Origin: Thalassomonas sp. RHCl1
Lineage (GTDB): Bacteria; Pseudomonadota; Gammaproteobacteria; Enterobacterales; Alteromonadaceae
Assembly: GCF_947387555.1 (NCBI RefSeq)
Contig: NZ_CANDNZ010000001.1
Span: 992,001 to 1,056,000, forward strand
Direction of reading: 5' to 3'
DNA: 64,000 bases
The first letter of the stretch is position 1; every line of letters begins with the position of its first letter. The notes under the pieces are model-generated. The model was not told the origin of the DNA. It did not search any database and was given only the letters and a program-made list of their open reading frames with translations. This document shows positions 5,774 through 36,626 of the stretch, one piece after another. A program made the translations under genes and the position numbers.

Positions 5774-6997
5774 TTAGCTTTCTACCTGTATCGTTTGCTC
5801 ATCGGCCCACACCAGGGCGTCGTGATAGCACTGGATCACTTTGTCTTTATTGAGACCAAGCTCAGTAAGTTCTTCGGAAATTTCATTCCATTGGGCGTGT
5901 TCGATAAAACTGACAATTCTCAGCAGGGAGGCCAGGGTGCCTTTACCTACTAATAAGGTATCTTTGATCTCCTGGGCCAGCGGCAGCTTTTCCAGGATAC
6001 TGGCAAGATCTTCGTCTAAGATGGCATCTATCATAGACAGTAAGCCGGTGAGGAAGGCGATGGAGATATCGACATTTTCTCTGGCTTCATTGGCCATCAA
6101 TTCACAAAACTTTGCCCGGGTCATGGAGACATTGATCAGTTCGCTCGGTTTGTCGGGATTGACATTTACGGCAAACATCAAGCCGATAAAACGTTTCAGC
6201 TCACTGGAGCCGAGGATCACCAAAGCCTGTTTGATGGTGGAGATCTCACTGCGACGCCTGAAAATAGCAGAGTTGGCATAACGCAACAGCTTATATGACA
6301 ACGAGATATCGCGCTCAAAAACCGAGGTGATGCTGGCAAGGTCGAGCTCGGGTTTAGAAGTTTCATATAAGAGCTCGGCCATGGCTACCTGGGAAGGGGA
6401 CAGGTTCTTGCTTTTCACCATTTCCGGCTTGGAGAAGAAAAAGCCCTGGAACAGCTCGAAGCCGTGTTCCAAAGCCTCGTTATATTGCTCGTAAGATTCC
6501 ACTTTTTCAGCCAGCAGCTGGATATGTGGATAGGCACTGATGGCCTGTTGAATAACCTTGACTTCATCAAAAGAGGTTTTATGTAAATCGATTTTGATGA
6601 TTTTGACAAAAGGATAAAAATGCTGCCAGACCTTCTGGTGTTCATAGTCATCGAGTGCCAGGATATAGCCTTTATCAAAAAGCTCTTTGCACAGGGCCAG
6701 TAATTTTTTGCCGGGTTTGACGGTTTCCAGAATTTCCACCACCACTTCATCCGGGGTCAGCATGGCAGGATAACCTTTGCTCATGGTTTCCAGGGTGAAA
6801 TTGATAAAGGCGGGTTTATTGCCGGTAAACTCACTGATGCCGAGATTAAATTGGCTGGCTTCGATCATTTTACTGGTGGCAATATCCCCGTCTACTTCGG
6901 GGAATACATTGTCTATACTGTCTCGGAACAATAACTCATAAGCGAAGAGATTTTTATTTTTGTCCAGAATGGGCTGTCTGGCCGCATAAAAGTACAT
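5774..6997 (-). CDS. EAL-HDOD signalling protein (CdgJ/YuxH type)
   Basis: The 407-residue cytoplasmic protein has an N-terminal EAL-like domain at about 1-195 and a C-terminal HDOD domain at about 200-395. The EAL catalytic signature is replaced by YELLFRD, and later parts read ALDDYEHQ and LAEKVE. The domain looks degenerate for c-di-GMP hydrolysis and more likely acts as a binding or protein-interaction module. The HDOD half shows the usual LSYKLLRYANSA and IKQALVILG segments. Proteins of this architecture control motility and biofilm in Vibrio. It is monocistronic. Confidence 0.88.
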   Translation of the reverse strand: MYFYAARQPILDKNKNLFAYELLFRDSIDNVFPEVDGDIATSKMIEASQFNLGISEFTGNKPAFINFTLETMSKGYPAMLTPDEVVVEILETVKPGKKLLALCKELFDKGYILALDDYEHQKVWQHFYPFVKIIKIDLHKTSFDEVKVIQQAISAYPHIQLLAEKVESYEQYNEALEHGFELFQGFFFSKPEMVKSKNLSPSQVAMAELLYETSKPELDLASITSVFERDISLSYKLLRYANSAIFRRRSEISTIKQALVILGSSELKRFIGLMFAVNVNPDKPSELINVSMTRAKFCELMANEARENVDISIAFLTGLLSMIDAILDEDLASILEKLPLAQEIKDTLLVGKGTLASLLRIVSFIEHAQWNEISEELTELGLNKDKVIQCYHDALVWADEQTIQVES

Positions 6998-7160
6998 AGA
7001 ATAGGGGTCCTCGGTAACAATTAGCCGCTTAACCCTGGATTACCTTTAGTTTGTAAGGTTTATCAGGCGGCTGGCTCAGGCTATATTCAGGAATTAAAGT
7101 CACTATAATTTAATCCCTGCAATATAGCCATTACTTTGTGACTCCGCTGCTCAAGAGGGC

Positions 7161-8624
7161 TTATTTTTTCTCCAGTAAAGCCCGGTAAACCCGCTCGCTG
7201 CCTTGTTCCTGCTCAGGAAACAGCAGGCTGAACAGGTAACCGCAGAACAATGCGCTGATAAAGCCAGGGACAATTTCATATAAATCAAAAAGTCCGCCGC
7301 TGAGCTGTTTCCATAACACCACTGTTAACGCTCCGGAAACAATGGCCGCCAGTGCCCCGATGCGGGTAAATTTAGACCAGAACAGGGCCAGTAGCATGGT
7401 AGGACCGAAAGCGGCGCCAAAACCGGCCCAGGCGTAGCTGACAAGTCCTAGGACAGTACTTTGCGGATCTGTGGCTATAAACGCCGCCAACAGGGCGATC
7501 AGCAGCAGGGACAAGCGCGACAGCCATACCAGTTTTTGCTCGCTTGGTTTGCCTTTGCTGAGTTGTTTATAAAAATCTTCGACGATGACACTTGAACACA
7601 CCAGTAATTGCGAGTCTATGGTACTCATGATCGCAGATAAGATCGCAGCGATTAAAATGCCGGCCACCCAAGGATTGAGCAGGACATGGGCCAGCTGGAT
7701 AAAGACGGTTTCGCTGTTCTCAAGCGGCGCCTCGATAAAGTAGGCCATGCCGACCACACCCACCGCCAGTGCCCCTACCAGGGAAATCACCATCCAGGCC
7801 ATGGCAATATTGCGGGATTTTGGAATATCGGCGACCGAACGGATGGCCATAAAACGCGATAAAATATGGGGCTGACCGAAATAACCCAGTCCCCAGGCCA
7901 TCAGTGAGCAAAAGCCGAGCCAGCTAAAGTTTTTGAAAAAGTCATCATAGTGGGGATCTGCCTGCTGTAAGATCTGCTGAGTTTGTTCTATGCCGCCCAA
8001 TTCATTAAGGGTCACTACAGGTAAAATCACCAGAGCAAGTAACATCAAACAGCCCTGAAAAAAATCGGTCCAGCTTACCGCCAGAAAACCGCCGAGAAAG
8101 GTATAGGAGACTATGACTACAGTGCCGATCAGCAGGGCGTTTTGATAGTCGATGGCGAAGACTTTCTCAAACAAGATGGCGCCGCCGACCAGGCCGGAAG
8201 AAACATAAAAGGTAAAAAACACTAAAATGGTCAGGGCGGAGATAAAACGCAGGATATTGGATTTATCGTCAAAGCGTTTGGCGAAAAAGTCCGGCATGGT
8301 TAAGGCGTCATCGGCATGTTCGCTAAAGTGCCTGAGCCTGGGAGCCACCAGCAACCAGTTTAGCCAGGCGCCAAACACCAGACCTACCCCGATCCAGACT
8401 TCACTGACCCCGGACAAATAAATGGCCCCGGGTAAACCTAGCAATAGCCAGCCGCTCATATCCGATGCGCCGACGCTCAGCGCCGTGACCGCAGGCCCCA
8501 GTTGTCTGCCGCCTAAGATATAATCGCTTAAGGTATTGGTGGCCTTAAAGGCCAGGTAGCCAATGAGCAAAGTGGTTAATAAATAAGAAATAAAAGTGAT
8601 CAGGGTAGGGAGTGAAAACGCCAT
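7161..8624 (-). CDS. putP: Sodium/proline symporter
   Basis: The 487-residue protein of the sodium:solute symporter family has about 13 membrane segments. The start MAFSLPTLITFISYLLTTLLIGYLAFKAT, then YILGGRQLGPAVTALSVGASDMSGWLLLGLPGA, the GYFGQPHILSRFMA segment and the STIDSQLLVCSSVIVEDFYK region are diagnostic of PutP. It imports proline with Na+, consistent with a marine sodium economy. No putA is adjacent. Confidence 0.93.
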   Translation of the reverse strand: MAFSLPTLITFISYLLTTLLIGYLAFKATNTLSDYILGGRQLGPAVTALSVGASDMSGWLLLGLPGAIYLSGVSEVWIGVGLVFGAWLNWLLVAPRLRHFSEHADDALTMPDFFAKRFDDKSNILRFISALTILVFFTFYVSSGLVGGAILFEKVFAIDYQNALLIGTVVIVSYTFLGGFLAVSWTDFFQGCLMLLALVILPVVTLNELGGIEQTQQILQQADPHYDDFFKNFSWLGFCSLMAWGLGYFGQPHILSRFMAIRSVADIPKSRNIAMAWMVISLVGALAVGVVGMAYFIEAPLENSETVFIQLAHVLLNPWVAGILIAAILSAIMSTIDSQLLVCSSVIVEDFYKQLSKGKPSEQKLVWLSRLSLLLIALLAAFIATDPQSTVLGLVSYAWAGFGAAFGPTMLLALFWSKFTRIGALAAIVSGALTVVLWKQLSGGLFDLYEIVPGFISALFCGYLFSLLFPEQEQGSERVYRALLEKK

Positions 8625-9512: not shown

Positions 9513-10074
9513 TGTACTGACCTCGTTGTATCGGTTCGTTATCCAGCGCGTCTTTTAACTGGTTACGCGCTCTGAACAGGCGTGTCATAACGGTGTTTTT
9601 ATTTAAGTCCAGCATCTTGGCAATATCGTCACCGCTAAAACCGCCGATGACCTGCAATACCAAGGGCTCCCGGTACTCTTCCGGCAGCTGGGCTATTTTC
9701 TCCCTGAGCCAGTGATTTTCAATTTCCTGTTCACTGCCAACCGCTTGGTTATCGGCAATGGTCACTTCTTCATAATCCGCCATATCTAAACGTTTACGTT
9801 CGAAGCGTCTGGCATTTTCCCGTCTTAAAATTGTGATCAACCATGACTTGGCTGCTTTTTCATCTTTTAATGAATCAAGGGCCCGCCATGCACGTAAAAA
9901 AGTTTCCTGTACTAAGTCTTCAGCTACCTGTTTATCATGACATAACCAATAGGCATATCGGTATAAATCTGTGTGCAGGGCTTTAACCAGTGCTTCGTAT
10001 CGAATTTGTTTAGTCGCCATGTTGTTAGAGACCTGATCGCGATCAGATTTATTTCGAAATAATTTTTTAATCAT
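9505..10074 (-). CDS. ECF-type RNA polymerase sigma factor
   Basis: The 189-residue protein has sigma region 2 (LYRYAYWLCHDKQVAEDLVQETFLRAWRALDSL) and region 4 (LPEEYREPLVLQVIGGFSGDDIAKMLDLNKNTVMTRLFRARNQLKDAL). It lacks regions 1 and 3, as expected for an extracytoplasmic-function sigma factor. The ATG at 10074 gives an 18-residue basic extension; the internal ATG at 10020 (MATKQIRYEAL) is an equally plausible start. It is coupled to the DUF3379 gene. No ECF-type promoter was recognised upstream. Confidence 0.88.
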   Translation of the reverse strand: MIKKLFRNKSDRDQVSNNMATKQIRYEALVKALHTDLYRYAYWLCHDKQVAEDLVQETFLRAWRALDSLKDEKAAKSWLITILRRENARRFERKRLDMADYEEVTIADNQAVGSEQEIENHWLREKIAQLPEEYREPLVLQVIGGFSGDDIAKMLDLNKNTVMTRLFRARNQLKDALDNEPIQRGQYNG

Positions 10075-10234
10075 AAATCTTTTTAATCTCTATAAGCTAA
10101 GATATTGATAGGCAAGCTAAAATAGATAGCTTGCCCTTGTATGCTGACACTATTATATCTCTTTTACTGGCGAGTTAGCTGTCATCTGCCGCCTTGTCGC
10201 TGCCTTTTATCTCTTTTATCTCTCTTGATATTTA

Positions 10235-11959
10235 TCATGGATTTAAGGCAATAGCGACCTCGGCTGTCTTTTTCGATTGCTTTTTATTGATGTTGACCAG
10301 GATGGTTAACAGCTTTTTCCCCTGCCAGGCAGGCAGGCTTGCTGTTGTTTTGGCGTGTTCTCTGCTCTGCTCTTTACCATGGCCCTTACCGTAGTAATGG
10401 TGCTGGAGTTCATTGATCACTTCGGTAAAATCTTGACGGTCGATCACCTTGATCACTTCATCCAGGGTGGAGACCTTTTTGCGCCCGGTACTGAAATTAT
10501 GTTTGCCGCTGTTAATCCAGGCGGGTAACAGGCTGATCACCTGTTCGCCGTTATTTTGCTTACAGGCGGCCATTAACGCCAGGTAGGGGTCGACATGTTT
10601 AACCGGCTCACTGCCTGCTCCCTGTGTTTGCTGTTGTCTTTTCCCCCGGGCGCTGACGAACCAGGCCAAGGAGGTTAACAGCCACAAGGCCATAAACAGC
10701 CAGGTTAACCAGGAATGCTCTTTTACGGTCACGGTTTGCACTTCCTGTCCCAGGGGAGCGACATTATCGCCTTGGGGCATTGCAAAAGGCGCGTTATTTG
10801 CTGTTTGTACCCCGGGTAATACTTCAATTTCCTGCGCCGCTATGGTGCTGGTTTCATAGCGGTTGGTGACGGTATTCCACCAGGGAATAGAAATTTCCGG
10901 CAAGGTATATTTGCCGGGTTTGCTGGCCACCAGGGCAAAGTTCCTGACTTTCTGGCTCACCAGGCGGTCTTTATTTAAACTGGTATGCAGCTCTGCCTGG
11001 TCCGGATAGACTTTTAATCCCGGTGGCATCTCCATGGCAAGCTCGGGTAACTGCTCTTCCGATAAACCGGCGGCAGTCAGGGTAACGGTGCGGGTGATCG
11101 GCTCGCCGACGGTAAATTTCGTCAGTTCAGGCTGCCATTCCTGATGCAGGGTTAACAGCTCGCTCGGCAGCCATTGTCCCTGGAATGTATCCGGCACCGG
11201 GCGGACATTGAGGGAAATGCTCTCTCCCATCACAGAGACCGGCTTGGTTTCTGAAAAGCTGAAAAAGCTCGAGCGGCGGCGGCTATTGGCCATCACTTCA
11301 CCGGAAAATACCGGGGCGGCAATCACAAAGTCACCACTTTGCTGCGGGGTAATGGCATAGGTACGCTCAATCACCCGGTAGCGACGGCCGTTGATGATGC
11401 TTTCGCTTTCGCCGTCTTTACCCACTTGCTGGATATTGGCGCCTTCGAGCTCCGGCTCGCTTAACGTGCCGCGTTTTAATTCGGTGCTAAAGTGCAATTT
11501 AACCGACATGGTAACCAGCTGCTGCACATAAACATCATTGTTTGACACTTCTGCGGTGATGAAAATGTCCTGCTGGTTGTTGCCTGCTTTGGCGCTTGAT
11601 GCCGGCACCACCTCCAGGTTAATGGCCTGGGTTTGCGTCGAGCCCACCGTCAGCGGCGGGATAGTGACATTGCCCGCTTTACGGGCGAATAATACCGTGG
11701 TCCAGGTGGTGCTGTAGGAGGTTTTAAAGTTCACCATGCTGGTTTGCGAACTGACCGAGGTGCGCCCGACGATAAAGTCTTTTTGCAGCGGTGTCGTGTC
11801 CAGGGCATTGCTGCCGACATCTTCATTGGCCACCACTGAGAGTACAAAAGACTCATTGAGCATAACAGGGTTTTTATCTACGCTGGCACTAACCTGTGGC
11901 GCGGCCATCGCGGCCTGTGAAAGCAAAAGGCCTATCAAACATAAAATTGCTTTTACCAC
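10235..11959 (-). CDS. batD: BatD family protein (last gene of the moxR-bat operon)
   Basis: The 574-residue protein has a Sec signal peptide (MVKAILCLIGLLLSQAAMAA), a long periplasmic beta-rich region of about 400 residues and one membrane span near residues 418-437 (HSWLTWLFMALWLLTSLAWFV). A charged cytoplasmic tail follows. The N-terminal pattern VSASVDKNPVMLNESFVLSV and the later GxYTLPEISIPWWN motif are typical of BatD/oxygen tolerance proteins. The exact molecular role of Bat proteins is unresolved; they act with MoxR ATPases and VWA proteins at the envelope. The start overlaps the batB/C stop by seven bases. Confidence 0.9.
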   Translation of the reverse strand: MVKAILCLIGLLLSQAAMAAPQVSASVDKNPVMLNESFVLSVVANEDVGSNALDTTPLQKDFIVGRTSVSSQTSMVNFKTSYSTTWTTVLFARKAGNVTIPPLTVGSTQTQAINLEVVPASSAKAGNNQQDIFITAEVSNNDVYVQQLVTMSVKLHFSTELKRGTLSEPELEGANIQQVGKDGESESIINGRRYRVIERTYAITPQQSGDFVIAAPVFSGEVMANSRRRSSFFSFSETKPVSVMGESISLNVRPVPDTFQGQWLPSELLTLHQEWQPELTKFTVGEPITRTVTLTAAGLSEEQLPELAMEMPPGLKVYPDQAELHTSLNKDRLVSQKVRNFALVASKPGKYTLPEISIPWWNTVTNRYETSTIAAQEIEVLPGVQTANNAPFAMPQGDNVAPLGQEVQTVTVKEHSWLTWLFMALWLLTSLAWFVSARGKRQQQTQGAGSEPVKHVDPYLALMAACKQNNGEQVISLLPAWINSGKHNFSTGRKKVSTLDEVIKVIDRQDFTEVINELQHHYYGKGHGKEQSREHAKTTASLPAWQGKKLLTILVNINKKQSKKTAEVAIALNP

Positions 11960-13842
11960 TTTTTCTTAACTCCTGCTGGCGTACCGTTCTGGCGGCGTTT
12001 TTGATACTCAATCTGCATTTTGTTGCGCAGTAACAAATAAGGGTCATCCGTAACCTTATTCAATAATTGCTGATGTTTTTGCTCGGTTTCCTGATCGGCT
12101 TTTTCCTGGGCTAACCTGGCCTGTTGCTGCTCGGGTGTTTCTTCTCCCTGCTCTTGCTCGGCCTCTCGCTGTTTGGCTTCCTGCTCGGCTTTTTCACGCT
12201 CAGCCTGCTCTTGCTCCGCCTGTGATTGCTGCTCTTGTTTTTCCTGCTCAGACTGCTGATCTTGTCCCTGCTGCTGGTCGTTTTGCTCTTGTTGTTTTTC
12301 CTGCTCCGACTGCTGGCCTTGTTGCTGGTCGCTTTGCTGCTGTTCATCATTCTGCTGCTGCGACTGCTGATCCTGACCTTGCTGTTGTTGCTGCTGCGAG
12401 TCTTGACCTTCTTGCTCCTGGTCCTGATTTTCCTGGTCCTTGTTTTGTTGATCCTGATTTTGCTGCTGTTGTTGTTCCTGCTGCTTTTTCAACTCTTCGA
12501 TCAGTTGCTTGTTTTTTTGCGCATCAATCAGCTCGGGATCTTTTTCCAGCGCCTGCTCATAGGCTTTGAGGGCCTCATCAAACTTTTGCATTTTCGCCAG
12601 GGTATTGCCCTTATTGTACAGGGCATCGGCGCTGTCGAACTTTTCAAACGCTTCCAGGGCTTTTTCATAGTCGCCCGCTTTATAGTGGGCGCTGCCCGCC
12701 CATAGGGGGTCCTGAAAGTTCTTGGCTGCCTGGGAATAGTTTTGCTGGTTAAACTGCTGTTGTGCCTGCTGATCTTTGGTTTTCCACAGGTCCTGCCACT
12801 CCAGTGCATAAGCCTGCTGGTTTGGCATCAGCAAGAAGGTTAACGGCAACAGGGCAACTACCGTGCCGCGGCGGAAATACCCCAGTAACAGGGGTAAAAG
12901 TAATAACAGCAGGTAAGGACCCGCTTCCTGCCACTGGTCTCCCAGGTTTTGCGACTCGCCTTCTTCCTTATCGGACTCCATGCCCGGAGGCAGGGTGATC
13001 AGGGCATTGATGTCGGCGTTGTCATTGGTGATGGTGCGGTAAGTGCCGCGCCCTTTACTGGCCAGGCCGTATAAACGTTTCTCATTGGTTCTTGGCACGA
13101 CAATCGCGCCGGAATCATCTTTCATCAACTCGCCGCTGGGTAAAGTGATCGGCGCACCTGCGCTGCTGCCGACCCCTAAAATATTCAGGCGGTGGGGGAA
13201 GCTGCGGCTCCAGTCATTGATATCTTCAATATCCTCAAAGTCTATGCCGTCGGTAAACCAGTAGATATCTCCCTCGAGATGACCGGCATTGCTCAGCATT
13301 TCATGGGCCAGGGTTAATGCCGCCAGCGGGTTACTGCCTAGCTCAGGCATGATCTCCGGACTGATGGCGGGCAATAACAACTTAATGTTATTGATGTCTT
13401 CCGTTAACGGGCTGATGGTAAAGGCATCCCCGGCATAGGCGATCAGGCCGATTTCGCCTTCGTTTAGGCTGTCGAGTAAATCGCTGGCCTTATATCTTGA
13501 CCGGGTTAAACGGTTTGGCGCCAAATCGGTACTGTACATGGAATAAGACATATCCATGAGCAGCACAGAGCCGCGTTCTACCTGATATACCGGCTGCGGT
13601 AGTTTTTGCCAGGTTGGCCCGGCCAGGGCCAGTATGCCCAAAGTGCCGATAATAAAAGGCAGGGTCAGGGATAAAGGTTTACTTTTTTGCGTGCCGTTAA
13701 TCAGTACCTTGGCCAGGTGGCCGGGTAAAAACTGCTGCCAGCCGGAATGGGCGACCGACATGCGCTTTAACAGCCATAACACTAATAATAAGGCAAAAAA
13801 TGCCAGCAGGGCCCAGGGGCGGATAAAATGAAAATCTGCCAT
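11953..13842 (-). CDS. VWA-TPR membrane protein, BatB-BatC fusion
   Basis: The 629-residue protein has membrane spans near residues 8-25 and 57-76 and a von Willebrand A domain from about 90 to 270. Its MIDAS motif is DMSYS (DxSxS). Another hydrophobic hairpin lies at about 303-345, TPR repeats at about 365-445, and a Gln/Glu/Asp-rich tail from about 450 to 590. The first half corresponds to BatB and the TPR half to BatC. The low-complexity tail is coded by CTG/TTG-rich DNA on the plus strand and makes long leucine-rich shadow frames. The C-terminus is basic (KRRQNGTPAGVKKKW). Confidence 0.9.
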   Translation of the reverse strand: MADFHFIRPWALLAFFALLLVLWLLKRMSVAHSGWQQFLPGHLAKVLINGTQKSKPLSLTLPFIIGTLGILALAGPTWQKLPQPVYQVERGSVLLMDMSYSMYSTDLAPNRLTRSRYKASDLLDSLNEGEIGLIAYAGDAFTISPLTEDINNIKLLLPAISPEIMPELGSNPLAALTLAHEMLSNAGHLEGDIYWFTDGIDFEDIEDINDWSRSFPHRLNILGVGSSAGAPITLPSGELMKDDSGAIVVPRTNEKRLYGLASKGRGTYRTITNDNADINALITLPPGMESDKEEGESQNLGDQWQEAGPYLLLLLLPLLLGYFRRGTVVALLPLTFLLMPNQQAYALEWQDLWKTKDQQAQQQFNQQNYSQAAKNFQDPLWAGSAHYKAGDYEKALEAFEKFDSADALYNKGNTLAKMQKFDEALKAYEQALEKDPELIDAQKNKQLIEELKKQQEQQQQQNQDQQNKDQENQDQEQEGQDSQQQQQQGQDQQSQQQNDEQQQSDQQQGQQSEQEKQQEQNDQQQGQDQQSEQEKQEQQSQAEQEQAEREKAEQEAKQREAEQEQGEETPEQQQARLAQEKADQETEQKHQQLLNKVTDDPYLLLRNKMQIEYQKRRQNGTPAGVKKKW

Positions 13843-27890: not shown

Positions 27891-30029
27891 TTAGTGATCA
27901 GTGAGTCTTTTACTTAAGTCTGGTATGGTTATTTTACCAATAAAAGTATTGGCAGCCTGGAGGTTATTAAGAATCAACTTATTGTTTTGTATTGATAAAC
28001 TTTGTGTTGCTACACCCTGGATATTTATTTTCTTGTTTTGTTGTGTGGCGTAATTAAATTGGTAAATATTATTTACTGAATCAAGATGATAAATCGCACT
28101 CTTACTAACAGCCCAAAGTTTATTATTATTATTGAACGTTATTTGGGTGAGGTAATGTTTGGTTTTATCAATTTCCCAATTATTGGTTAGTTGAAAAATT
28201 CCTGGTTCAGTGATGCTTGAAGCGTAGTATTCTCCTATGTTGTTAGCTGTACTATTAGTTACGTTATTACAAAAGTTATGAATTGATGTTAGGCCGGTTG
28301 TTAGTAGTTTTGTGTCTTGGGTAAATATATTGACTCGGTATAGCCCCCAACCCCCCTGTTTTTTAGCGATCACAAGAATATTTTCATTAGAGTTACATTG
28401 CCAGGTAAAGTTCTTTGCGTACTTTGTTGGTTGAGTTATTGTAATTACTTCTCTGGTATCAATATTCAATACTTTTAATTTATTATCTTTTAAAAATAAT
28501 AAATTTTTGCCGTTCAGTGAAAAAGACAAATCTTCAATATAAGGTTTTCCCTCAAACTGGGTTAGTTGTTGTAATTTGTTATGTTCTTTTAACCAAATTT
28601 GGTAATTGCCGGAACGGTTAGAAACAAAGGCGATTTTTTCTCTTTCACTATTTTCGTAGATAGCTGCAGAGTGGTCTTTAAAGCTAGAATTAATCAAGTT
28701 TGAAACCACCAAATCGGGTTTGCTTAAATCTACCTGTTTAATATCAGATTTGTAGAGATCTCCAAATGACACTAAAAAGTTCGTTTCAGAGAGCATTACA
28801 GGATCTAGCAGTTGCTTAGTATGTTGGAAAAGTGGGATGTGTTTTTTGGTATTAATGTTTACAGCATTAATAGTATTGGTGTCTCCACCTGTATAAAGTA
28901 TATGATTACCAAACTTGGACCAACTGAGAGGGTATGGTGAATATGATGGCTTTATTATCGAACTAAGCTCACCATTTAGTAGGTTTAACACCATGATTTC
29001 TCTTGAATAATCGTCATGTACACGCATAACTGCAAGCTTGCTGTCATCAGGGCTTAAACTTAAGAATTTGTCACCAGCGAATTTTATTGATGATGTGGTT
29101 AAGGTTTCTATTTGATTACTCTTTAAATGAAAACGTTTAATTATGCTGGGTGAAAGAGTTGATTCTCTATAAATATAATAAAGCCAATTTAAGTCTTTAC
29201 TTATAGCTATGGAAGTAAACTCATTAAAATTAGATGATTGCCCACAAAAAACCACTTTCTCCGGGAGAGATGCTATTAACTCGCTGGAAATAGATACTTT
29301 TTTTATAAAGCATTCTTTCTCTGAAAATGATTGATAAAATAGTACTCTGCTTTCTGGCTGCCAAAAAGGGGAACCAGTGCTGTTATCAGGTTCTATTTTT
29401 AGTACTTGTTTACTTGATTGTTCTTGAACAATGACTTGGTAATGAGTGTTTCTATTTGATTGGTGGGTGAATGCTAATAAGGTTTGATCTGCAGAAATAG
29501 CTGGGGCTTGTTCCCAACCCTCCATATAAGTTAAAGGTACTACGGATATATCTTTTTCAATTAATAGCGGAGGTTGTGTTGTTTTCTCTTGTTTTAAAGG
29601 AGTTATTTGTAACCATGAAATGCTCCATAAAGCGAAGCATAAAATAAGAGAAAAGACTACGTATTTATTTAAGCTTTTGATTTTTTTCGTCTTATTAGCT
29701 ACTGGCTTCCCCAAAAACTCAACCTGGCAATTTAATGAATAACCAAGCTTAGGGTGGGTTTTAATAAAATCATCCCGCTCGCCACCAAGTATTTTTCTTA
29801 ACCTTGATATCGCCGAATTAACAGTTCTGTATTCCACATGCCGGTCTTGCCAAACATCCTGTATTAGCTGATCCCGTGTAACCAGCGCATCACCGTTTTT
29901 CGCCAAATATTCCAGCAGTACAATATATTTGGCTTCTATTGTCGTTTTGTTATTGTCTGGGTCGATAAGAGTGTTGTTAACAGGGTCTAAGGTCCACTGA
30001 TTAAGTTTGATGAGTCTAGACTTGTCCAT
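27891..30029 (-). CDS. CadC/ToxR-like winged-helix regulator with PD40 repeats
   Basis: The 712-residue protein has an N-terminal OmpR/PhoB-type winged helix (about 5-105: EAKYIVLLEYLAKNGDALVTRDQLIQDVWQ, RTVNSAISRLRKILGG, IKTHPKLGYSL). A single membrane span follows at about 127-145 (VVFSLILCFALWSISWL). The large periplasmic region holds WD40-like PD40 beta-propeller blades (DQTLLAFTHQSNRN, PDDSKLAVMRVHDD, REKIAFVSNRSGNYQIWL). Such proteins bind DNA from the membrane. It lies downstream of the exporter gene of the bacteriocin locus on the same strand. PhoB-type helices bind 11-bp-spaced direct repeats, which occur upstream of the exporter and adaptor genes. That link is inference. Confidence 0.88.
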   Translation of the reverse strand: MDKSRLIKLNQWTLDPVNNTLIDPDNNKTTIEAKYIVLLEYLAKNGDALVTRDQLIQDVWQDRHVEYRTVNSAISRLRKILGGERDDFIKTHPKLGYSLNCQVEFLGKPVANKTKKIKSLNKYVVFSLILCFALWSISWLQITPLKQEKTTQPPLLIEKDISVVPLTYMEGWEQAPAISADQTLLAFTHQSNRNTHYQVIVQEQSSKQVLKIEPDNSTGSPFWQPESRVLFYQSFSEKECFIKKVSISSELIASLPEKVVFCGQSSNFNEFTSIAISKDLNWLYYIYRESTLSPSIIKRFHLKSNQIETLTTSSIKFAGDKFLSLSPDDSKLAVMRVHDDYSREIMVLNLLNGELSSIIKPSYSPYPLSWSKFGNHILYTGGDTNTINAVNINTKKHIPLFQHTKQLLDPVMLSETNFLVSFGDLYKSDIKQVDLSKPDLVVSNLINSSFKDHSAAIYENSEREKIAFVSNRSGNYQIWLKEHNKLQQLTQFEGKPYIEDLSFSLNGKNLLFLKDNKLKVLNIDTREVITITQPTKYAKNFTWQCNSNENILVIAKKQGGWGLYRVNIFTQDTKLLTTGLTSIHNFCNNVTNSTANNIGEYYASSITEPGIFQLTNNWEIDKTKHYLTQITFNNNNKLWAVSKSAIYHLDSVNNIYQFNYATQQNKKINIQGVATQSLSIQNNKLILNNLQAANTFIGKITIPDLSKRLTDH

Positions 30030-30163: not shown

Positions 30164-30580
30164 TTAACGATAGATAATTCTCGCCAGCTTGGTGTGAAAG
30201 TAAAATGCCAGCACCAGCAAAAAAATGACTTTGGTGGTTATGGCTAAAGTTATCGTCATATCTTGCGCCAGGGCTAAAACAAAGCCGGTGGATAATGCCG
30301 CGAAAATTTTATTAGATGCCGTTACCTGGTTCATGATCACTGAAAAGAAATAACCGAACATTACTAACAGGCTGAAACCGGTAAACAGCATGTTGGTGGT
30401 AAAAAGCAAAAAGAGCGAAAAAATCAGTAGGTACTGGCTGAGGATCAGCCAAGTAAATTGTGCGGCTTCCCGGTGATAGCTTTCGGTGTAGCTATTTTTA
30501 AAATTAAGGCGAAAGCCCTCGTTATTGCTTGTCCTGTTTTCGTCGCTGTTGTCAGTGGTTAAGGTATTGTCTTTTAACAT
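30164..30580 (-). CDS. Hypothetical membrane protein downstream of the exporter
   Basis: The 138-residue protein has a polar 40-residue N-terminus and about four predicted membrane segments between residues 42 and 130 (FTWLILSQYLLIFSLFLLF, MLFTGFSLLVMFGYFFSVIM, ALSTGFVLALAQD, TITLAITTKVIFLLVLAFYF). It lies 145 bases after the C39 exporter on the same strand. It may be an accessory or immunity protein of the bacteriocin locus, or unrelated. No family recognised. Confidence 0.6.
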   Translation of the reverse strand: MLKDNTLTTDNSDENRTSNNEGFRLNFKNSYTESYHREAAQFTWLILSQYLLIFSLFLLFTTNMLFTGFSLLVMFGYFFSVIMNQVTASNKIFAALSTGFVLALAQDMTITLAITTKVIFLLVLAFYFHTKLARIIYR

Positions 30581-30725: not shown

Positions 30726-32888
30726 TTATGCTTGCTCGTTATGCTGCCGGGTTATGGTGTTGTCTGCCACAAGCAGCTGGCCTTGCTCCAGTTGCAGCAC
30801 TTGCCCCGCCTGGTTAATGGTTTCCGGGCGGTGGGCGATAATAATTCGGGTTATATTGAGCTTGCTTATTTGTTTGCTGATCTTCGCTTCGTTTTTTATG
30901 TCCAGATGGCTGGTGGCTTCGTCCATGAATAAAATGTCCGGTCTTTTGTACAGGGCACGGGCCAGCAGCAACCTTTGTATTTGTCCGCCGGATAAATTGG
31001 CCCCCATGTCGCCTACCAGGGCATTGTAGCCCATGGTCATCAGGCAGATGTCTTTGTGTATGGCGGCCAGACGTGCGCATTGTTCAATGCGTAGGGTATT
31101 TGGCTCAGGGTCAAAAAAGCAGATGTTGTCGGCAATTGAACCTGCCAGCAGGGTGTCGTCCTGCATTACCGCGCCTACCTGCTGGCGGTAGTTTTTCAGG
31201 CCCAAGCGGGTAATGTCCTGGCCGTCGAATAATATCCGGCCGCTTGTGGGTTGCAATAAGCCGAGCATAAGTTTGGCCAGGGTAGTCTTACCACAGCCTG
31301 AATGGCCGGTAATGGCGATTGAGTCACCAGCTTTTATGGTAACGGATAAATTGTCTATGATGTAATGTTCGTCTTCACCGTAGCGGAAACTGACGTTTTC
31401 CAGCACCAGTTCGCCTTTTTGCGTTAAGCCGTAGTTGATCATTTGTGTGCCGTCACCGTCGCGGTTAGGCTCTTGCTCGTGCAGGGCGATATCGGCCAGG
31501 CGGTCTAGGTGAAGGCGCATCATTTTAAATTCGATCAGCTGTTCAATGAAGCTGGCAAATCTTTGGGTCAGCTGGCTTTTGTAGGCGATAAAGGCCAGCA
31601 CCATGCCTATGGTCAAGTTGCCTGTCATCACCAGGTTGGCAGCCAAATACACTACCAGTACGTTTTCCAGACCAAACAGGAGTTTGTTTACCGCGTCAAA
31701 ACTTATCTGTAATTTGCCCAGGCGGATATCGGCGTTGATCACCTCTGCGTAACGGTTTTGCCAGATGCCCTGGCGCTGGGCTTCGTTGCCGAACAGTTTA
31801 ATGGTTTGTATGCCGCGGATATTTTCTAAAAAGTTACTTTGCTCTTTGGCGGCGTTTTGGATGGATTCTTCGGTTGCACGATGCAGCGGCCGGTACAGGC
31901 TAAAGCGGGCAATGACATACAGGGTAATGGCAGCTACTACTACCAGGGTGAGCTTAATGCTATATAGTGCCATCATCACCAATACCGTAATCGACATCAG
32001 GCCGTCAACACTGGCTTCTACCAGCCCTGTGGTGATACGTTCGCGAATTTGCGCCAGTGAGCCGAACCGGGATACTACATCGCCGACATGGCGCGATTCA
32101 AAGTAGTTCATGGGCAGGCGCAGCAAATGATGCAGCAGGTTTACTCCCATTTGCATGTTGAGCAAACTTGATATTCTTAACACCAGATAGCTGCGTACTG
32201 TGGTGGCGAGCACATTGAAAAGACACAGCAGGGCAAAGCCGATAGCGAGTACGGTCAGCAAAGGCTGGTCTTGGCTGATCAATACTTCGTCTACTACCCA
32301 TTGCATATAATACGGGCTTGCCAGGGCAAACAGCTGTAATACCAGCGACAGGGCAAATAACTTTAACAGAGAGCTTTTTAAGCCGGAGATATTGCTCCAC
32401 AGCTGGCCGAGTTTCATGCGCTGGCGTTCGTTTTTTACTTCAAATTTGTTGGTAGGAGTCAGCTCCAACGCTATGCCGGTAAAGTGCTGGCTAAATTCAT
32501 TCAGGGTTAGGGTCTTTTTGCCGGTGGCGGGGTCGTTAATGGTGATGCTTTTGCCGCTGACCTTGGTTAATACCACAAAATGGTTCATGTCCCAGTGCAA
32601 AATACAGGGCAGGGCGAGCCGGGGTAAGTCTTCTACCGGACATTGCAGGGCGCGGCTGGCCAAACCTAAGCTGTCGCCAAGGTCTATCAGCTGTTGCAGA
32701 TTCATGCCTTTAAGGTTGGCACTAAAGCGCTTGCGCATGGTCGGCATGTCTAACTGGTGGCCGTAGTATGAAGCGATCATTGCCATTGAGGCCAGGCCGC
32801 ATTCCGCTACTTCCGCCTGTAAAATTAGCGGTACGCGTTTGGCGTTTGAAAACTCCAGTAGTTGCTCTGCGTTTGCGGTATTGTCCAT
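30726..32888 (-). CDS. Peptidase-C39 bacteriocin ABC exporter
   Basis: The chosen ATG at 32888 has AGGA seven bases upstream and gives 720 residues; an upstream in-frame start at 32957 is less likely. Order: peptidase C39 (about 18-140), six-span ABC membrane domain (about 165-455), ATPase (about 490-715). The protease is intact: Gln24 and Cys30 in QAEVAECGLASMAMIASYYG, His in DMNHFVVL, Asp in INDPATGK. The ATPase has GHSGCGKTT, LSGGQIQRLLLARAL and ILFMDEATSHLD. Such exporters cut peptides after a double-glycine leader and secrete the core. Two matching precursors lie at 34814-35126. The partner adaptor is the HlyD protein at 35379. Confidence 0.95.
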   Translation of the reverse strand: MDNTANAEQLLEFSNAKRVPLILQAEVAECGLASMAMIASYYGHQLDMPTMRKRFSANLKGMNLQQLIDLGDSLGLASRALQCPVEDLPRLALPCILHWDMNHFVVLTKVSGKSITINDPATGKKTLTLNEFSQHFTGIALELTPTNKFEVKNERQRMKLGQLWSNISGLKSSLLKLFALSLVLQLFALASPYYMQWVVDEVLISQDQPLLTVLAIGFALLCLFNVLATTVRSYLVLRISSLLNMQMGVNLLHHLLRLPMNYFESRHVGDVVSRFGSLAQIRERITTGLVEASVDGLMSITVLVMMALYSIKLTLVVVAAITLYVIARFSLYRPLHRATEESIQNAAKEQSNFLENIRGIQTIKLFGNEAQRQGIWQNRYAEVINADIRLGKLQISFDAVNKLLFGLENVLVVYLAANLVMTGNLTIGMVLAFIAYKSQLTQRFASFIEQLIEFKMMRLHLDRLADIALHEQEPNRDGDGTQMINYGLTQKGELVLENVSFRYGEDEHYIIDNLSVTIKAGDSIAITGHSGCGKTTLAKLMLGLLQPTSGRILFDGQDITRLGLKNYRQQVGAVMQDDTLLAGSIADNICFFDPEPNTLRIEQCARLAAIHKDICLMTMGYNALVGDMGANLSGGQIQRLLLARALYKRPDILFMDEATSHLDIKNEAKISKQISKLNITRIIIAHRPETINQAGQVLQLEQGQLLVADNTITRQHNEQA

Positions 32889-33374: not shown

Positions 33375-33662
33375 CTAATCATCGTGATATTCAGATAGGG
33401 AGAAAAATACGTCTAAATATTTTTGTAAAAACAAACTTGCTAAGATCCCTAAAATGACAACCAATTCGGCTTCAATATTTAATGAATAACCAAGTACGCC
33501 ACAAAAAAGGCCTATAATCACACTATTTATTAATACGTCGAATGTTTTTATCTTGAGGTTTTTACAACAATATGGGCAGGTAAAATAGGGGTTCTTAAGG
33601 CTCTGTTTAATATATTTAATTTCTATTAATTTATTGCAACAAGGACATTTTCTAGAAAACAA
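33375..33662 (-). CDS. Small zinc-ribbon membrane protein, immunity candidate
   Basis: The 95-residue protein starts with a four-cysteine cluster, CPCC at residues 7-10 and CPYCC near 29-33, typical of a rubredoxin-like zinc ribbon. Two membrane spans follow at about 45-62 and 66-84. GGAG lies 10-13 bases before the ATG. It is AT-rich like its neighbours in the bacteriocin locus and is the last small gene before the exporter. A function in self-protection or in membrane assembly is possible; no family assigned. Confidence 0.6.
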   Translation of the reverse strand: MFSRKCPCCNKLIEIKYIKQSLKNPYFTCPYCCKNLKIKTFDVLINSVIIGLFCGVLGYSLNIEAELVVILGILASLFLQKYLDVFFSLSEYHDD

Positions 33663-33720: not shown

Positions 33721-33909
33721 TTAGCTTGATATTAAGCTTTTTATTTTATACTTGCTTTCCTTCAATGATATCAAATTATTAGAGACTAAATAATTGCTCT
33801 GGCAATAACTTTTACTGTAGATATAAAACAGCACAAATGCGCCGAAAAAGATGGTGAAGATAAAAATCATTGCCAGTAGGTTTTTTGATTTTGTTGCCGA
33901 TGTGAGCAA
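33721..33909 (-). CDS. Small single-span membrane protein with uncertain start
   Basis: The 62-residue reading from a TTG codon has one strong membrane span (NLLAMIFIFTIFFGAFVLFYIY) and a polar tail with one cysteine. The open frame continues 17 codons further upstream, to the end of the preceding gene, without ATG, GTG or another TTG. That part reads as plausible protein (KNHLLSILEQQTEHPLL), so translation may begin at a rare ATA/ATT codon by coupling. It is part of the AT-rich block between the peptide genes and the exporter. No family recognised. Confidence 0.45.
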   Translation of the reverse strand: MLTSATKSKNLLAMIFIFTIFFGAFVLFYIYSKSYCQSNYLVSNNLISLKESKYKIKSLISS

Positions 33910-33953: not shown

Positions 33954-34184
33954 TTATTTCTTATTGTCATTAAGGCATTCCTTTTTTTTATGAAGAATTC
34001 TTTTCAATGAATTTGGGAGTAAGTCCTTGCCTAATATGCAGCTGATTAAAAGGTGTATATTGATCAAAAGTAAGACGATAAGAAATACCACCATCTCAAT
34101 CGCTAATGAATTAAAGGTTATGATTAATGTAAAAATTAACTTTAATGCCGAAAAAGCAAATATTGGAACTAACAATCCTTTCAT
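33954..34184 (-). CDS. Small two-span membrane protein, immunity candidate
   Basis: The 76-residue protein has two hydrophobic helices (about 4-24 and 28-52) and a strongly basic tail (KRILHKKKECLNDNKK). Its ATG overlaps the stop of the CPBP gene (ATGA), showing translational coupling. Size, topology and place directly behind the peptide and CPBP genes fit a bacteriocin immunity protein, but no family match can be claimed. Confidence 0.6.
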   Translation of the reverse strand: MKGLLVPIFAFSALKLIFTLIITFNSLAIEMVVFLIVLLLINIHLLISCILGKDLLPNSLKRILHKKKECLNDNKK

Positions 34185-34636
34185 ATGTAAAATACCTGCA
34201 GGACAAATAAGAAAATCGCATTATTGATGGCGTGTAGCAGTATGGGCAGTCGTATGCTTTTTGATTTTATACGTGTCAGGGCTAAAATTCCCCCTAAAGT
34301 AAATAACATAAAAGAAACTAATAAATTAGTTTTAAAATGCACTAGCGCCCATAAAAAAGAAGACATTAATATCGCAATAACAGTATTAATGCGGAGCAGA
34401 AAGTTAAATAATACACGGCGAAAAATGAATTCTTCTATTATTGGAGCTAAAAAAATCACGGCAACTGCGAAAAGCCAGATATTAGCGCCGTGAAGTAATG
34501 CCAGGCTTTCTTTTAATTCATCATGAAGAAACGTTGTTTGTGTATATAGAACATACATTGCAACTTGGTAGAGTAAAAAAAAAGCAAAAATAGTTTTTCT
34601 AAAATCAAAATCTGATTTACTGGAAAGCTTAAGCAA
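34181..34636 (-). CDS. CPBP-family intramembrane metalloprotease, probable immunity protein
   Basis: The 151-residue membrane protein has the CPBP/Abi motifs: EEFIFRR (EExxxR) at about residues 68-74, FLWALVHF with the second conserved His, and ILLHAINN with the third (HxxxN). About four membrane spans. The TTG start is supported by AGGAGAGGGAG directly upstream. Members of this family confer self-immunity in many class II bacteriocin loci. Here it follows the two precursor genes and is coupled to the next small membrane gene. It is shorter than typical CAAX proteases but complete in motifs. Confidence 0.82.
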   Translation of the reverse strand: MLKLSSKSDFDFRKTIFAFFLLYQVAMYVLYTQTTFLHDELKESLALLHGANIWLFAVAVIFLAPIIEEFIFRRVLFNFLLRINTVIAILMSSFLWALVHFKTNLLVSFMLFTLGGILALTRIKSKSIRLPILLHAINNAIFLFVLQVFYI

Positions 34637-34724: not shown

Positions 34725-34753
34725 ATAAATCAATTCGAAATAGTTTTTTATAA

Positions 34754-34782
34754 CGCTCTAACTAGTGTGATTTATTAGAGCG
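34754..34782 (-). terminator. Hairpin between the peptide genes and CPBP
   Basis: CGCTCTAA/TTAGAGCG forms an 8-bp stem with a 13-base loop, 31 bases after the second peptide gene. On the minus strand TTATAAAAAAC follows, so it is a weak terminator or a processing signal that may make peptide mRNA more abundant than immunity mRNA. Confidence 0.4.
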
Positions 34783-34813
34783 CCAGTAGCTTATGCTAGT
34801 TGAGTTGATAGTT

Positions 34814-34990
34814 TTAAAGCTTTTGGCTACCTCTAAAGTTACCGTTGTTATATGACCAGCTGCCAAATGATGCCGCACCGCCATTTACCCAGCCCGAGCC
34901 AGCATTCCATCCCTTTACAAAGGCTGTTGCAAAAACGGCCCAAACTCCGCCATTAATTGCCTTAATTTCTTTCGTATTTAATTCTCTCAT
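34814..34990 (-). CDS. Double-glycine bacteriocin precursor, peptide 2
   Basis: This 58-residue ORF is too short for usual gene calling. GGGAGA stands five bases before the ATG. The leader MRELNTKEIKAINGG matches the class II bacteriocin type, with conserved MREL, EI and I-N-Gly-Gly at positions -4 to -1. The predicted core is 43 residues: a hydrophobic start (VWAVFATAFVKGW) followed by a Gly/Ser/Asn/Trp-rich part (GSGWVNGGAASFGSW) with a GxxxG (GWNAG), and a basic end. The leader is nearly identical to that of the gene 10 bases upstream. Family: class IIb lactobin/cerein-like peptides, judged by leader and size. Confidence 0.88.
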   Translation of the reverse strand: MRELNTKEIKAINGGVWAVFATAFVKGWNAGSGWVNGGAASFGSWSYNNGNFRGSQKL

Positions 34991-35000
34991 GTTTATCTCC

Positions 35001-35126
35001 CTATCTCATGCTTTTTGCGAATGAATACCATGCGTAAACATTTCCAGCCTGTACTAATGCATATACAGCCAGAGGTGGAATGCCGCCGTTGATTTCTTGA
35101 ATTTCATTGGTGTGTAATTCTCTCAT
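35001..35126 (-). CDS. Double-glycine bacteriocin precursor, peptide 1
   Basis: This 41-residue ORF starts at ATG 35126 with AAGGA about seven bases upstream. The leader MRELHTNEIQEINGG is followed by a 26-residue core that starts IPPLAVYALVQAG and ends SFAKSMR. The core is hydrophobic with two Trp/Tyr pairs, an AxxxA segment and a cationic C-terminus, suited to insert in a membrane. It precedes peptide 2 in one unit, as in two-peptide class IIb bacteriocins. Cleavage after Gly-Gly by the C39 exporter is inferred from family knowledge. Confidence 0.88.
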   Translation of the reverse strand: MRELHTNEIQEINGGIPPLAVYALVQAGNVYAWYSFAKSMR

Positions 35127-35378: not shown

Positions 35379-36626
35379 TTAACTCAATCTGCCATGCAGG
35401 CTGTAAATTGGTGCCATTATCCATTCGATAAGGCTACGCTTGTCCAGGATGATATCGGCGTTAATTAACATGCCGCTTTTTAAGTGGAACTCTTCACCGT
35501 AGGCGTTAATAAATTGCCGGTCGAGTTTGGCTTGCAGCCGGTAAACCGGCTCTTTGATCGGCACCGGAAAGTCGACATCGTTTTGGGTGATCAGGGTTTT
35601 GTCGATTCGATCAATTGTTCCTGTTAAAAAGCCGAACCGCTGGTACGGGAAAGCGTCAAAACGCATGTGTGTGAGGTCTCCTGTTGAGATAAAACCAGCG
35701 GAACGGGACGGAAGTAATAACTCCGCAACCAGTTGTGCCCCGTGGGGCAAAATTGTCAGTAGCGGCCTGTGAGTTTTTAAGGTTTCACCGTTTACTACTT
35801 GTATTGAGGTAACTATGCCGCTGTGGGTGGCTTTCACTACATAGCTGTAATTATTTTCGGTTTCGCTCAGGCGCCGGGTTAGTTCTGATTGCTGTTGCTT
35901 GATGGCGCGCTTTTTCGCCAGATACTCCGGTGCAATGGTTTTTTCTTCGTATTCAAGCTGGGCCAGTTGGTCCTGTAGTGTTATTAGGGTACGCTCCAGG
36001 GCTTCGACTTCCTGCCTGACATTGATATGGCGCTCTTGTTGCTGCTGATAGTCAAGCTCAGATAAGTATCCTTGTTTTACCAGTTTGCGGTATTGCACTT
36101 GCTTGTCGTTGAACAAGGCTAATTTTTCTTTTAGCAACAGTTGTTGTTTGATACTGATCCTGGTGTTTTTTTCCAGAGACTCTTGTTTTTCCAGGTTGCG
36201 GCTAATGGCTTGGCGCTCCATCCGGTCAAGTTGGCGTAGCTCTTGTGCCAATAGGGCTGCTTGAGATTTTAATTCGTAAATAAGTTTTGTGCTGAGCTCT
36301 TCACCATTGTTTAGGCTGCGTGATTTGATAATGCTGACTAACGGTGTGCCTATTTCCACAAAGTCTCCTTCCTGCACAAAGACTTGCTTAATGGTGCCGG
36401 TACCGGGAGCATAACTTTTGATCACACCTTTGTCGGGGCGTAAAAAGCCTTGCACTGTTGCCTTGCGGGCATAATGGCTGTTAAACAGGAAAACGATCAT
36501 GGCGATGACCACAGCAACAAAAATCACCACGGTAGATGTTATTGATTTAGGTTGTGTCAGGGATACCGGGCCGGTTAAACGGTGGGTTTGTGCCTCTACT
36601 GCTTCTTTTCTAAATAGTTGTGTCAT
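35379..36626 (-). CDS. HlyD-family periplasmic adaptor of the bacteriocin exporter
   Basis: The 415-residue membrane fusion protein has one N-terminal span (about 30-50, STVVIFVAVVIAMIVFLF), a biotinyl-lipoyl-like strand (ATVQGFLRPDKGVIKSYAPGTGTIKQVFVQEGDFVEIGTPLVSI), a long coiled coil at about 115-255 and a second lipoyl half with ATHSGIVTSIQVVNGETLK. It would join the C39 ABC exporter to an outer-membrane TolC-type channel, which is not in this window. It lies 252 bases upstream of the peptide genes on the same strand. Its own upstream region has the 11-bp repeats. Confidence 0.93.
   Translation of the reverse strand: MTQLFRKEAVEAQTHRLTGPVSLTQPKSITSTVVIFVAVVIAMIVFLFNSHYARKATVQGFLRPDKGVIKSYAPGTGTIKQVFVQEGDFVEIGTPLVSIIKSRSLNNGEELSTKLIYELKSQAALLAQELRQLDRMERQAISRNLEKQESLEKNTRISIKQQLLLKEKLALFNDKQVQYRKLVKQGYLSELDYQQQQERHINVRQEVEALERTLITLQDQLAQLEYEEKTIAPEYLAKKRAIKQQQSELTRRLSETENNYSYVVKATHSGIVTSIQVVNGETLKTHRPLLTILPHGAQLVAELLLPSRSAGFISTGDLTHMRFDAFPYQRFGFLTGTIDRIDKTLITQNDVDFPVPIKEPVYRLQAKLDRQFINAYGEEFHLKSGMLINADIILDKRSLIEWIMAPIYSLHGRLS

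What the first reader, a model, noticed from the sequence alone, without database searches (positions are those of the whole stretch)
34814..35126. Two unannotated double-glycine bacteriocin precursors in tandem
Seen: two adjacent minus-strand ORFs of 41 and 58 codons, each with a good ribosome binding site, have leaders MRELHTNEIQEINGG and MRELNTKEIKAINGG. They share 11 of 15 leader positions, but the cores are unrelated to each other (26 and 43 residues). Known: such leaders mark class II (lactobin/cerein-type) bacteriocins cut by C39 exporters. Inference: a two-peptide toxin of a marine gammaproteobacterium, whose core sequences I do not recognise.
Basis: partly seen in the sequence, partly recalled or inferred. 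Interest (0 to 1): 0.88.

Follow-up and report, generated by a model that had tools for sequence, protein, structure and literature searches.

The report
Two-peptide bacteriocin cassette in marine bacteria
Two small neighbouring genes in a marine bacterium very probably encode a pair of exported peptides, most likely a two-part toxin against rival bacteria, and they recur beside the same likely protection gene in other marine bacteria.

Summary
In detail: two minus-strand ORFs (35126-35001, 41 aa; 34990-34814, 58 aa), double-glycine leaders identical at 11 of 15 positions, cores of 26 and 43 aa unlike each other; no such ORF in 300 simulated windows. They lie between an HlyD-type adaptor and a C39-peptidase ABC exporter. 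A same-genus genome keeps the locus, cores at dN/dS 0.05. Shewanella benthica KT99 has relatives of both cores in order, then a relative of the window's 76-aa membrane protein. A genome of a third genus has HlyD, A, B, CPBP, 76-aa relative, exporter in the window's order, but its B core matches the window's no better than shuffles. Best reading: an unmodified two-peptide bacteriocin exported by type I secretion, with a small membrane protein and a CPBP/Abi protease as immunity candidates. Both peptides miss curated cut-offs for the cerein-7B and class IIc models, so they are not filed there. Against strict pairing: one genome shows peptide A without B before its contig ends. Killing, cutting and cooperation are untested.

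The parts
35379..36626 (-). HlyD-family adaptor of the exporter, 415 aa
   Evidence: PF13437 3.3e-14, over cut-off; TIGR01843 1.4e-36 but below its cut-off
35001..35126 (-). peptide A precursor, 41 aa: 15-aa double-glycine leader, 26-aa core (charge +2)
   Evidence: core kept unchanged in G003 and related in KT99 and G547
34814..34990 (-). peptide B precursor, 58 aa: 15-aa double-glycine leader, 43-aa core (charge +3)
   Evidence: one core change in G003, related core in KT99
34751..34785 (-). RNA hairpin after gene B, perhaps a partial terminator or RNA stabiliser
   Evidence: fold z -4.3; hairpins at the same place in G003, KT99 and G547, regions chosen by eye; not called as terminator by the scan
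34181..34636 (-). CPBP/Rce1-like (Abi) intramembrane protease, 151 aa, TTG start; second immunity candidate
   Evidence: PF02517 9.4e-19, over cut-off; relative in the same place in G547; none found in KT99's genome
33954..34184 (-). 76-aa membrane protein, first immunity candidate; start overlaps the CPBP stop by 4 bases
   Evidence: relatives next to the peptides in KT99 and G547; two hydrophobic segments; two long helices in a low-confidence model, mean pLDDT 65.5
33375..33662 (-). 95-aa protein with two CxxC pairs and two hydrophobic segments, role unknown
   Evidence: kept in G003 with dN/dS 0.15; no family above cut-off
30726..32888 (-). C39-peptidase ABC exporter (from the ATG at 32888; longest frame from 32957)
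   Evidence: PF03412 4.7e-35, PF00664, PF00005; peptidase Cys, His and Asp matched to solved bacteriocin transporters 8vp3 and 4ry2

Best explanation
An unmodified two-peptide bacteriocin locus of a Gram-negative marine bacterium. Shown: two precursors with double-glycine leaders and unlike cationic cores, beside a C39 exporter and an HlyD adaptor. Inferred: the C39 domain cuts both after Gly-Gly and, with the adaptor and an outer-membrane channel encoded elsewhere, sends the 26-aa and 43-aa cores out; outside, A and B act together on the inner membrane of related competitors, probably by pairing as membrane-inserted helices; the 76-aa membrane protein protects the producer, with the CPBP protease as a second or helper factor. 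Peptides and immunity genes seem to move as a cassette into or between exporter loci.
For: Exporter with intact C39 residues and adaptor on either side. Cores under stronger constraint (6 synonymous, 1 non-synonymous change; dN/dS 0.05) than leaders (2 and 3; 0.33), small numbers. Both cores recur side by side in KT99 (z 9.4 and 7.8, 0 of 1000 shuffles each), followed by a relative of the 76-aa protein (E 1e-13). Same gene order in G547 of another genus. Core A and the 76-aa protein were found in the same 3 of 246 family genomes. A second, unrelated pair with its own small membrane protein is shared by G001 and G002. Immunity proteins of two-peptide bacteriocins carry transmembrane segments and some are Abi proteins (PMC6957408 passages).
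Against: G516 has a peptide A relative and no B before its contig end. G547's core B is no closer to the window's than shuffles (726 of 1000; 10 of 1000 to KT99's). No GxxxG in any of the three A cores nor in G547's B. Both peptides are below the curated cut-offs. In Colwelliaceae-like relatives single GG peptides are commoner than tandem ones (83 of 113 listed clusters). No promoter found upstream. No activity data.
Confidence: 0.6

Rival explanations
1. Two separate one-peptide class II microcins that share one exporter, each with its own immunity protein.
For: Microcin pairs sharing one export system are known (PMC9746304 passage). Two or three small membrane proteins lie behind the peptides. 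Peptide A occurs without a visible B in G516.
Against: The two cores stay adjacent and in order in KT99, where one small membrane protein follows directly; the unlike cores sit ten bases apart; similar tandem pairs recur.
Confidence: 0.22
2. Peptides that act on the producer or its kin rather than on rivals: autolysis or signalling, as with the Nap peptides of Neisseria gonorrhoeae.
For: Nap peptides are cationic double-glycine peptides with a C39 peptidase and a LagC-like protein, yet do not kill competitors and promote autolysis (PMC11798529 passages). No target has been tested here.
Against: No receptor-like gene is conserved beside the peptides: KT99 and G547 do not share the regulator genes that flank the window's locus (neighbourhoods read only to the ends of the loci).
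Confidence: 0.13
3. Chance ORFs or decayed genes.
For: Both are short; peptide genes are often missed or wrongly called.
Against: 0 hits in 300 simulated windows; cores conserved within and between genera.
Confidence: 0.01

Closest known systems
Class IIb (two-peptide) bacteriocins of Gram-positive bacteria, e.g. lactococcin G, carnobacteriocin XY
   Same: Two unlike cationic cores with double-glycine leaders encoded side by side; C39 exporter; small membrane and Abi-type proteins nearby (features from PMC6957408 passages, and recall)
   Different: Gram-negative host with HlyD adaptor; no family model above cut-off; GxxxG only in some B cores; cooperation untested
Class II microcins (microcin V type)
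   Same: Double-glycine leader, C39 ABC exporter with Cys/His/Asp, membrane fusion protein, small membrane immunity candidate (components as in PMC9746304 passages)
   Different: Verified ones are, as far as I recall, single peptides; cores here are shorter; 'class IIb microcin' is a different term from 'class IIb bacteriocin'
Nap peptides of Neisseria gonorrhoeae
   Same: Several cationic double-glycine peptides with a C39 peptidase and an immunity-like protein in a Gram-negative (PMC11798529 passages)
   Different: Naps promote autolysis and did not kill competitors; no sequence comparison with them was made here
McbABCI of Moraxella catarrhalis
   Same: Exporter genes, double-glycine bacteriocin and a 74-aa immunity protein in one operon (PMC2761928 passages)
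   Different: One bacteriocin peptide; no comparison of sequences was made here
Thalassomonasins A and B, viridisin (Thalassomonas)
   Same: Multi-peptide bacteriocin-type products from a genus that may be the host's (PMC11433236 passages)
   Different: Lanthipeptides with Cys; the cores here hold no Cys and no modifying enzyme gene was seen beside them

Membership tests
Class IIb two-peptide bacteriocins | Two different precursors side by side with double-glycine leaders | tested here: met
Class IIb two-peptide bacteriocins | Short cationic cores | tested here: met
   26 aa, +2; 43 aa, +3
[quoted passage not shown]
   B has three GxxxG; A has only GxxxG-like motifs (e.g. GNVYA), which are easily met by chance; G547's B has no GxxxG
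Class IIb two-peptide bacteriocins | Dedicated C39 exporter | tested here: met
Class IIb two-peptide bacteriocins | Membrane-bound immunity protein | tested here: inconclusive
   candidates at 33954-34184 and 34181-34636; no function tested
Class IIb two-peptide bacteriocins | Both peptides needed for full activity | not testable with these tools
   needs synthetic peptides
TIGR03949, lactobin A/cerein 7B family | Score over the curated cut-off (21.5 bits) | tested here: not met
   18.4 and 18.3 bits; the model also rings weakly, below cut-off, in 3 of 14 control genomes
PF10439, Bacteriocin_IIc | Score over the gathering cut-off (27.1 bits) | tested here: not met
   no match for A; 17.5 bits for B
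Class II microcins | Double-glycine leader, C39 exporter with Cys/His/Asp, membrane fusion protein | tested here: met
Class II microcins | TolC-type outer-membrane channel | not tested
   not searched for in this genome
Class II microcins | Antibacterial activity | not testable with these tools
   needs an assay
Abi/CPBP self-immunity proteins | Motifs ExxxR, FxxxH and a further invariant His (PMC6957408 passage) | tested here: inconclusive
   EFIFR and a later His (LLHAINN) present, second motif reads WALVH instead of FxxxH (read); PF02517 over cut-off

The most novel reading that the evidence does not exclude
Marine Gammaproteobacteria hold a large, little-recognised set of true two-peptide bacteriocins in which peptide pairs, with small membrane and Abi-type immunity genes of Gram-positive style, are exchangeable cassettes set between a fixed HlyD adaptor and a fixed C39 exporter, and whose two peptides must both cross the outer membrane of Gram-negative targets to work together.
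Probability: 0.35. Interest if true: 0.72.

Novelty: new variant of a known kind. Interest (0 to 1): 0.57.

Why it matters
Unmodified two-peptide bacteriocins are known, as far as I recall, from Gram-positive bacteria. Among the titles and abstracts listed by my paper searches (several lists were capped) I saw no tested unmodified two-peptide bacteriocin of a Gram-negative, although class II precursors are predicted across Gram-negative phyla (PMC12648078 passage). If the pair works, it poses a clear question: how two peptides that act together at the inner membrane both get through an outer membrane. The set of A, B and the 76-aa protein in three genera gives a direct and cheap test.

Tried and rejected
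ORF 33721-33909 (62 aa) as an immunity gene: dropped, its frame is not kept in G003. The 95-aa protein as a relative of the CxxC protein in G022: not supported (E 0.23). G022's pair as full relatives: mixed; its first core matches G547's A (1 of 2000 shuffles) and G516's (1 of 2000) but not the window's or KT99's (353 and 317 of 2000); its second core matches the window's B (0 of 2000, over 18 residues) but not KT99's or G547's (446 and 140 of 2000). Plasmid records: for peptide B one weak hit, Pantoea sp. Lij88, residues 1-32, E 0.04, not followed; for the 76-aa protein none among plasmids or phages. A 23-base word of gene B in viral contigs: 0. Profiles of A and B over 394 order genomes (drawn from a larger group): beyond the own genome, 10 and 4 genomes matched at E<=0.001, best 2.2e-6 and 5.8e-5; most of these matches cover mainly the leader, and where they run further (G305, G012) the cores look different by eye. 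The expectation that CPBP belongs to every such locus: not borne out by KT99. Promoter scan upstream: 0 found, 2.0 expected by chance. A fold search with the model of the 76-aa protein was not run because its confidence was low. Paper searches with Thalassomonas and with S. benthica plus bacteriocin showed nothing on this locus in their listings; a draft-genome note mentions bacteriocin clusters in general (PMC4400438 passage).

Full report
Observation. Searches show two minus-strand ORFs as described: 35126-35001 (41 aa) and 34990-34814 (58 aa), with leaders MRELHTNEIQEINGG and MRELNTKEIKAINGG (11 of 15 identical) and cores of 26 and 43 aa. The cores are not alike (704 of 1000 shuffles as good). 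A strict and a loose pattern for such ORFs each found these two and no other in the window, and nothing in 300 first-order Markov windows.

Surroundings. On the same strand, in order: HlyD-family adaptor (36626-35379), peptide A, peptide B, a CPBP/Rce1-like membrane protein (34636-34181), a 76-aa membrane protein (34184-33954) whose start overlaps the CPBP stop, a 95-aa protein with two CxxC pairs (33662-33375), and a C39-peptidase ABC exporter (30726 to 32888, or 32957 with the longest frame). The exporter aligns with solved bacteriocin transporters 8vp3 and 4ry2 over its residues 17-707, with Cys, His and Asp of the peptidase matched. The ORF 33909-33721 is probably not a gene, since its frame is lost in G003.

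Host. The window lies in a 7.56-Mb genome, in a genus of which three further genomes of 6.5-7.9 Mb were reached. Size fits Thalassomonas (7.7 and 7.4 Mb for two species, abstract of PMC4400438), but no call names the organism; this is inference.

Selection. Against the same-genus genome G003, which has the same locus, the two cores differ by 6 synonymous and 1 non-synonymous change (dN/dS 0.05), the leaders by 2 and 3 (0.33); HlyD 0.07, exporter 0.09, 95-aa protein 0.15, CPBP 0.16, and the 76-aa protein 0.77, with its first 32 residues unchanged and its tail varied. The counts for the peptides are small.

Relatives of the pair. A pattern-based scan of genome contigs with peptide B, which reaches close relatives only, returned one locus: Shewanella benthica KT99. 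There, after HlyD and a C39 exporter (71% identical), stand a 45-aa and a 50-aa double-glycine peptide and then a 67-aa membrane protein. Core A: z 9.4, 0 of 1000 shuffles; core B: z 7.8, 0 of 1000. The 67-aa protein matches the window's 76-aa protein at 36% over 66 residues, E 1e-13. No CPBP relative was found in that genome at E<=1e-5. A profile of the 76-aa protein found it in 3 of 246 family genomes (G000, G003, G547) and in 1 of 129 genomes of KT99's genus. In G547, another genus of the family, the order is HlyD, peptide A (46 aa), peptide B (53 aa), CPBP (40% identical over 130), 75-aa membrane protein (41% over 69), C39 exporter (70% over 705), among other flanking genes. G547's core A matches (z 10.8 to the window, 20.1 to KT99); its core B does not match the window's beyond shuffles (726 of 1000) and matches KT99's modestly (10 of 1000). 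A profile of core A found the same 3 of 246 family genomes, and 2 of 129 in KT99's genus: KT99 and, weakly (E 4e-4), G516.

Counter-example. G516 has HlyD, C39 exporter and a 45-aa relative of peptide A (core z 14.9 to G547's, 7.4 to KT99's, 3.7 to the window's) but no other double-glycine peptide in the 9 kb read; the contig ends 384 bases past peptide A. Either the A family can act singly there, or the partner is lost, elsewhere, or beyond the contig end.

A parallel case. Genome G001 of the same genus has the HlyD (86%) and exporter (90%) of the same locus, beside what reads as the same insulinase-like gene (the name is recalled), but other content between them: two other double-glycine peptides (a weaker third place is listed), a 70-aa membrane protein, a prolyl oligopeptidase and genes that I read as transposase-like. 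Neither CPBP nor the 76-aa protein was found in G001 or G002. G002 has relatives of both G001 peptides (z 20.9 and 13.0) and of its membrane protein (z 35.6), beside an exporter 57% identical to the window's. So of four genomes of the genus, two carry this cassette and one carries another at the same exporter. Cassette exchange is the simplest reading, not a proof.

Breadth. A 30-row profile of double-glycine peptides matched 72 of 246 family genomes at E<=0.001 (its rows include the window's and several of those genomes' own peptides). The call listed 150 places in 69 genomes and left more unlisted. At 400 bases these 150 form 113 clusters: 83 single, 30 with two or more, the latter holding 67 places in 28 genomes. 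Tandem peptides are thus common here, but single ones are commoner. TIGR03949 matched 14 of 59 relatives at E<=0.1, over the cut-off in 4, and rang weakly in 3 of 14 control genomes, none over the cut-off.

RNA. A stable hairpin follows gene B in the window, G003, KT99 and G547 (z -4.3, -4.5, -6.0, -2.7; regions picked by eye, so the z-scores are flattered). In G547 it is followed by a run of T and looks like a terminator; in the window it is not, and the scan does not call it one.

Chemistry. Core A: 26 aa, +2, no GxxxG; core B: 43 aa, +3, three GxxxG. None of the three A cores has GxxxG; KT99's B has one, G547's B none. The 76-aa protein and G547's relative show two hydrophobic segments, KT99's only one at the threshold used. 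An AlphaFold model of the 76-aa protein has two long helices and a C-terminal helix at mean pLDDT 65.5.

Mechanism. Shown: precursors, exporter, adaptor, conservation of cores, linkage to one small membrane protein. Inferred: cutting after Gly-Gly, export, joint action on membranes, immunity. Immunity proteins of two-peptide bacteriocins carry transmembrane segments, and some belong to the Abi family (PMC6957408 passages), which fits both candidates. The 76-aa protein is the better one, because KT99 has it and no CPBP was found there.

Known or new. Both peptides are below the curated cut-offs of TIGR03949 and PF10439, so they are not filed there. The locus is built like a class IIb bacteriocin exported like a class II microcin. 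Class II precursors are predicted in Pseudomonadota (PMC12648078 passage), so the kind is known; the pair, its companion genes and the apparently exchangeable layout are the new part. Papers were seen as search listings or passages, none in full.

Noticed in passing
L034 (G002) 5920-8231: A long array of double-glycine peptides: four nearly identical copies of one core in a row, then two other core families, in one exporter neighbourhood.
   Followed up: partly
L034 (G002) 9994-11974: An ATP-grasp protein (RimK and MvdD pre-ATP-grasp domains) beside three short ORFs with a shared MHPFSLKKE...TGG start; looks like a graspetide cluster (name recalled).
   Followed up: no
L031 (KT99) 6077-6175: A 32-codon ORF with a leader-like start (LDINEIDDVQALQ) in which the double glycine is missing; maybe a decayed or variant peptide (read).
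   Followed up: no
L104 (G516) 385-522: A peptide A relative standing alone behind HlyD and the C39 exporter, near a contig end.
   Followed up: partly
window 27891-30029 and 30164-30580: A membrane-linked winged-helix regulator with beta-propeller repeats (PF00486, PF07676) and a 138-aa membrane protein beyond the exporter; both are also present in G001 and G003.
   Followed up: partly
own genome G000:C6:218493-220568 and G000:C2:985279-987342: Two further exporters 52% and 46% identical to the window's; what they export was not looked at.
   Followed up: no
L011 (G018), L015 (G021), L040 (G305), L046 (G261), L051 (G335), L053 (G396): Other tandem pairs of double-glycine-type peptides of 42-59 aa with differing cores.
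   Followed up: partly
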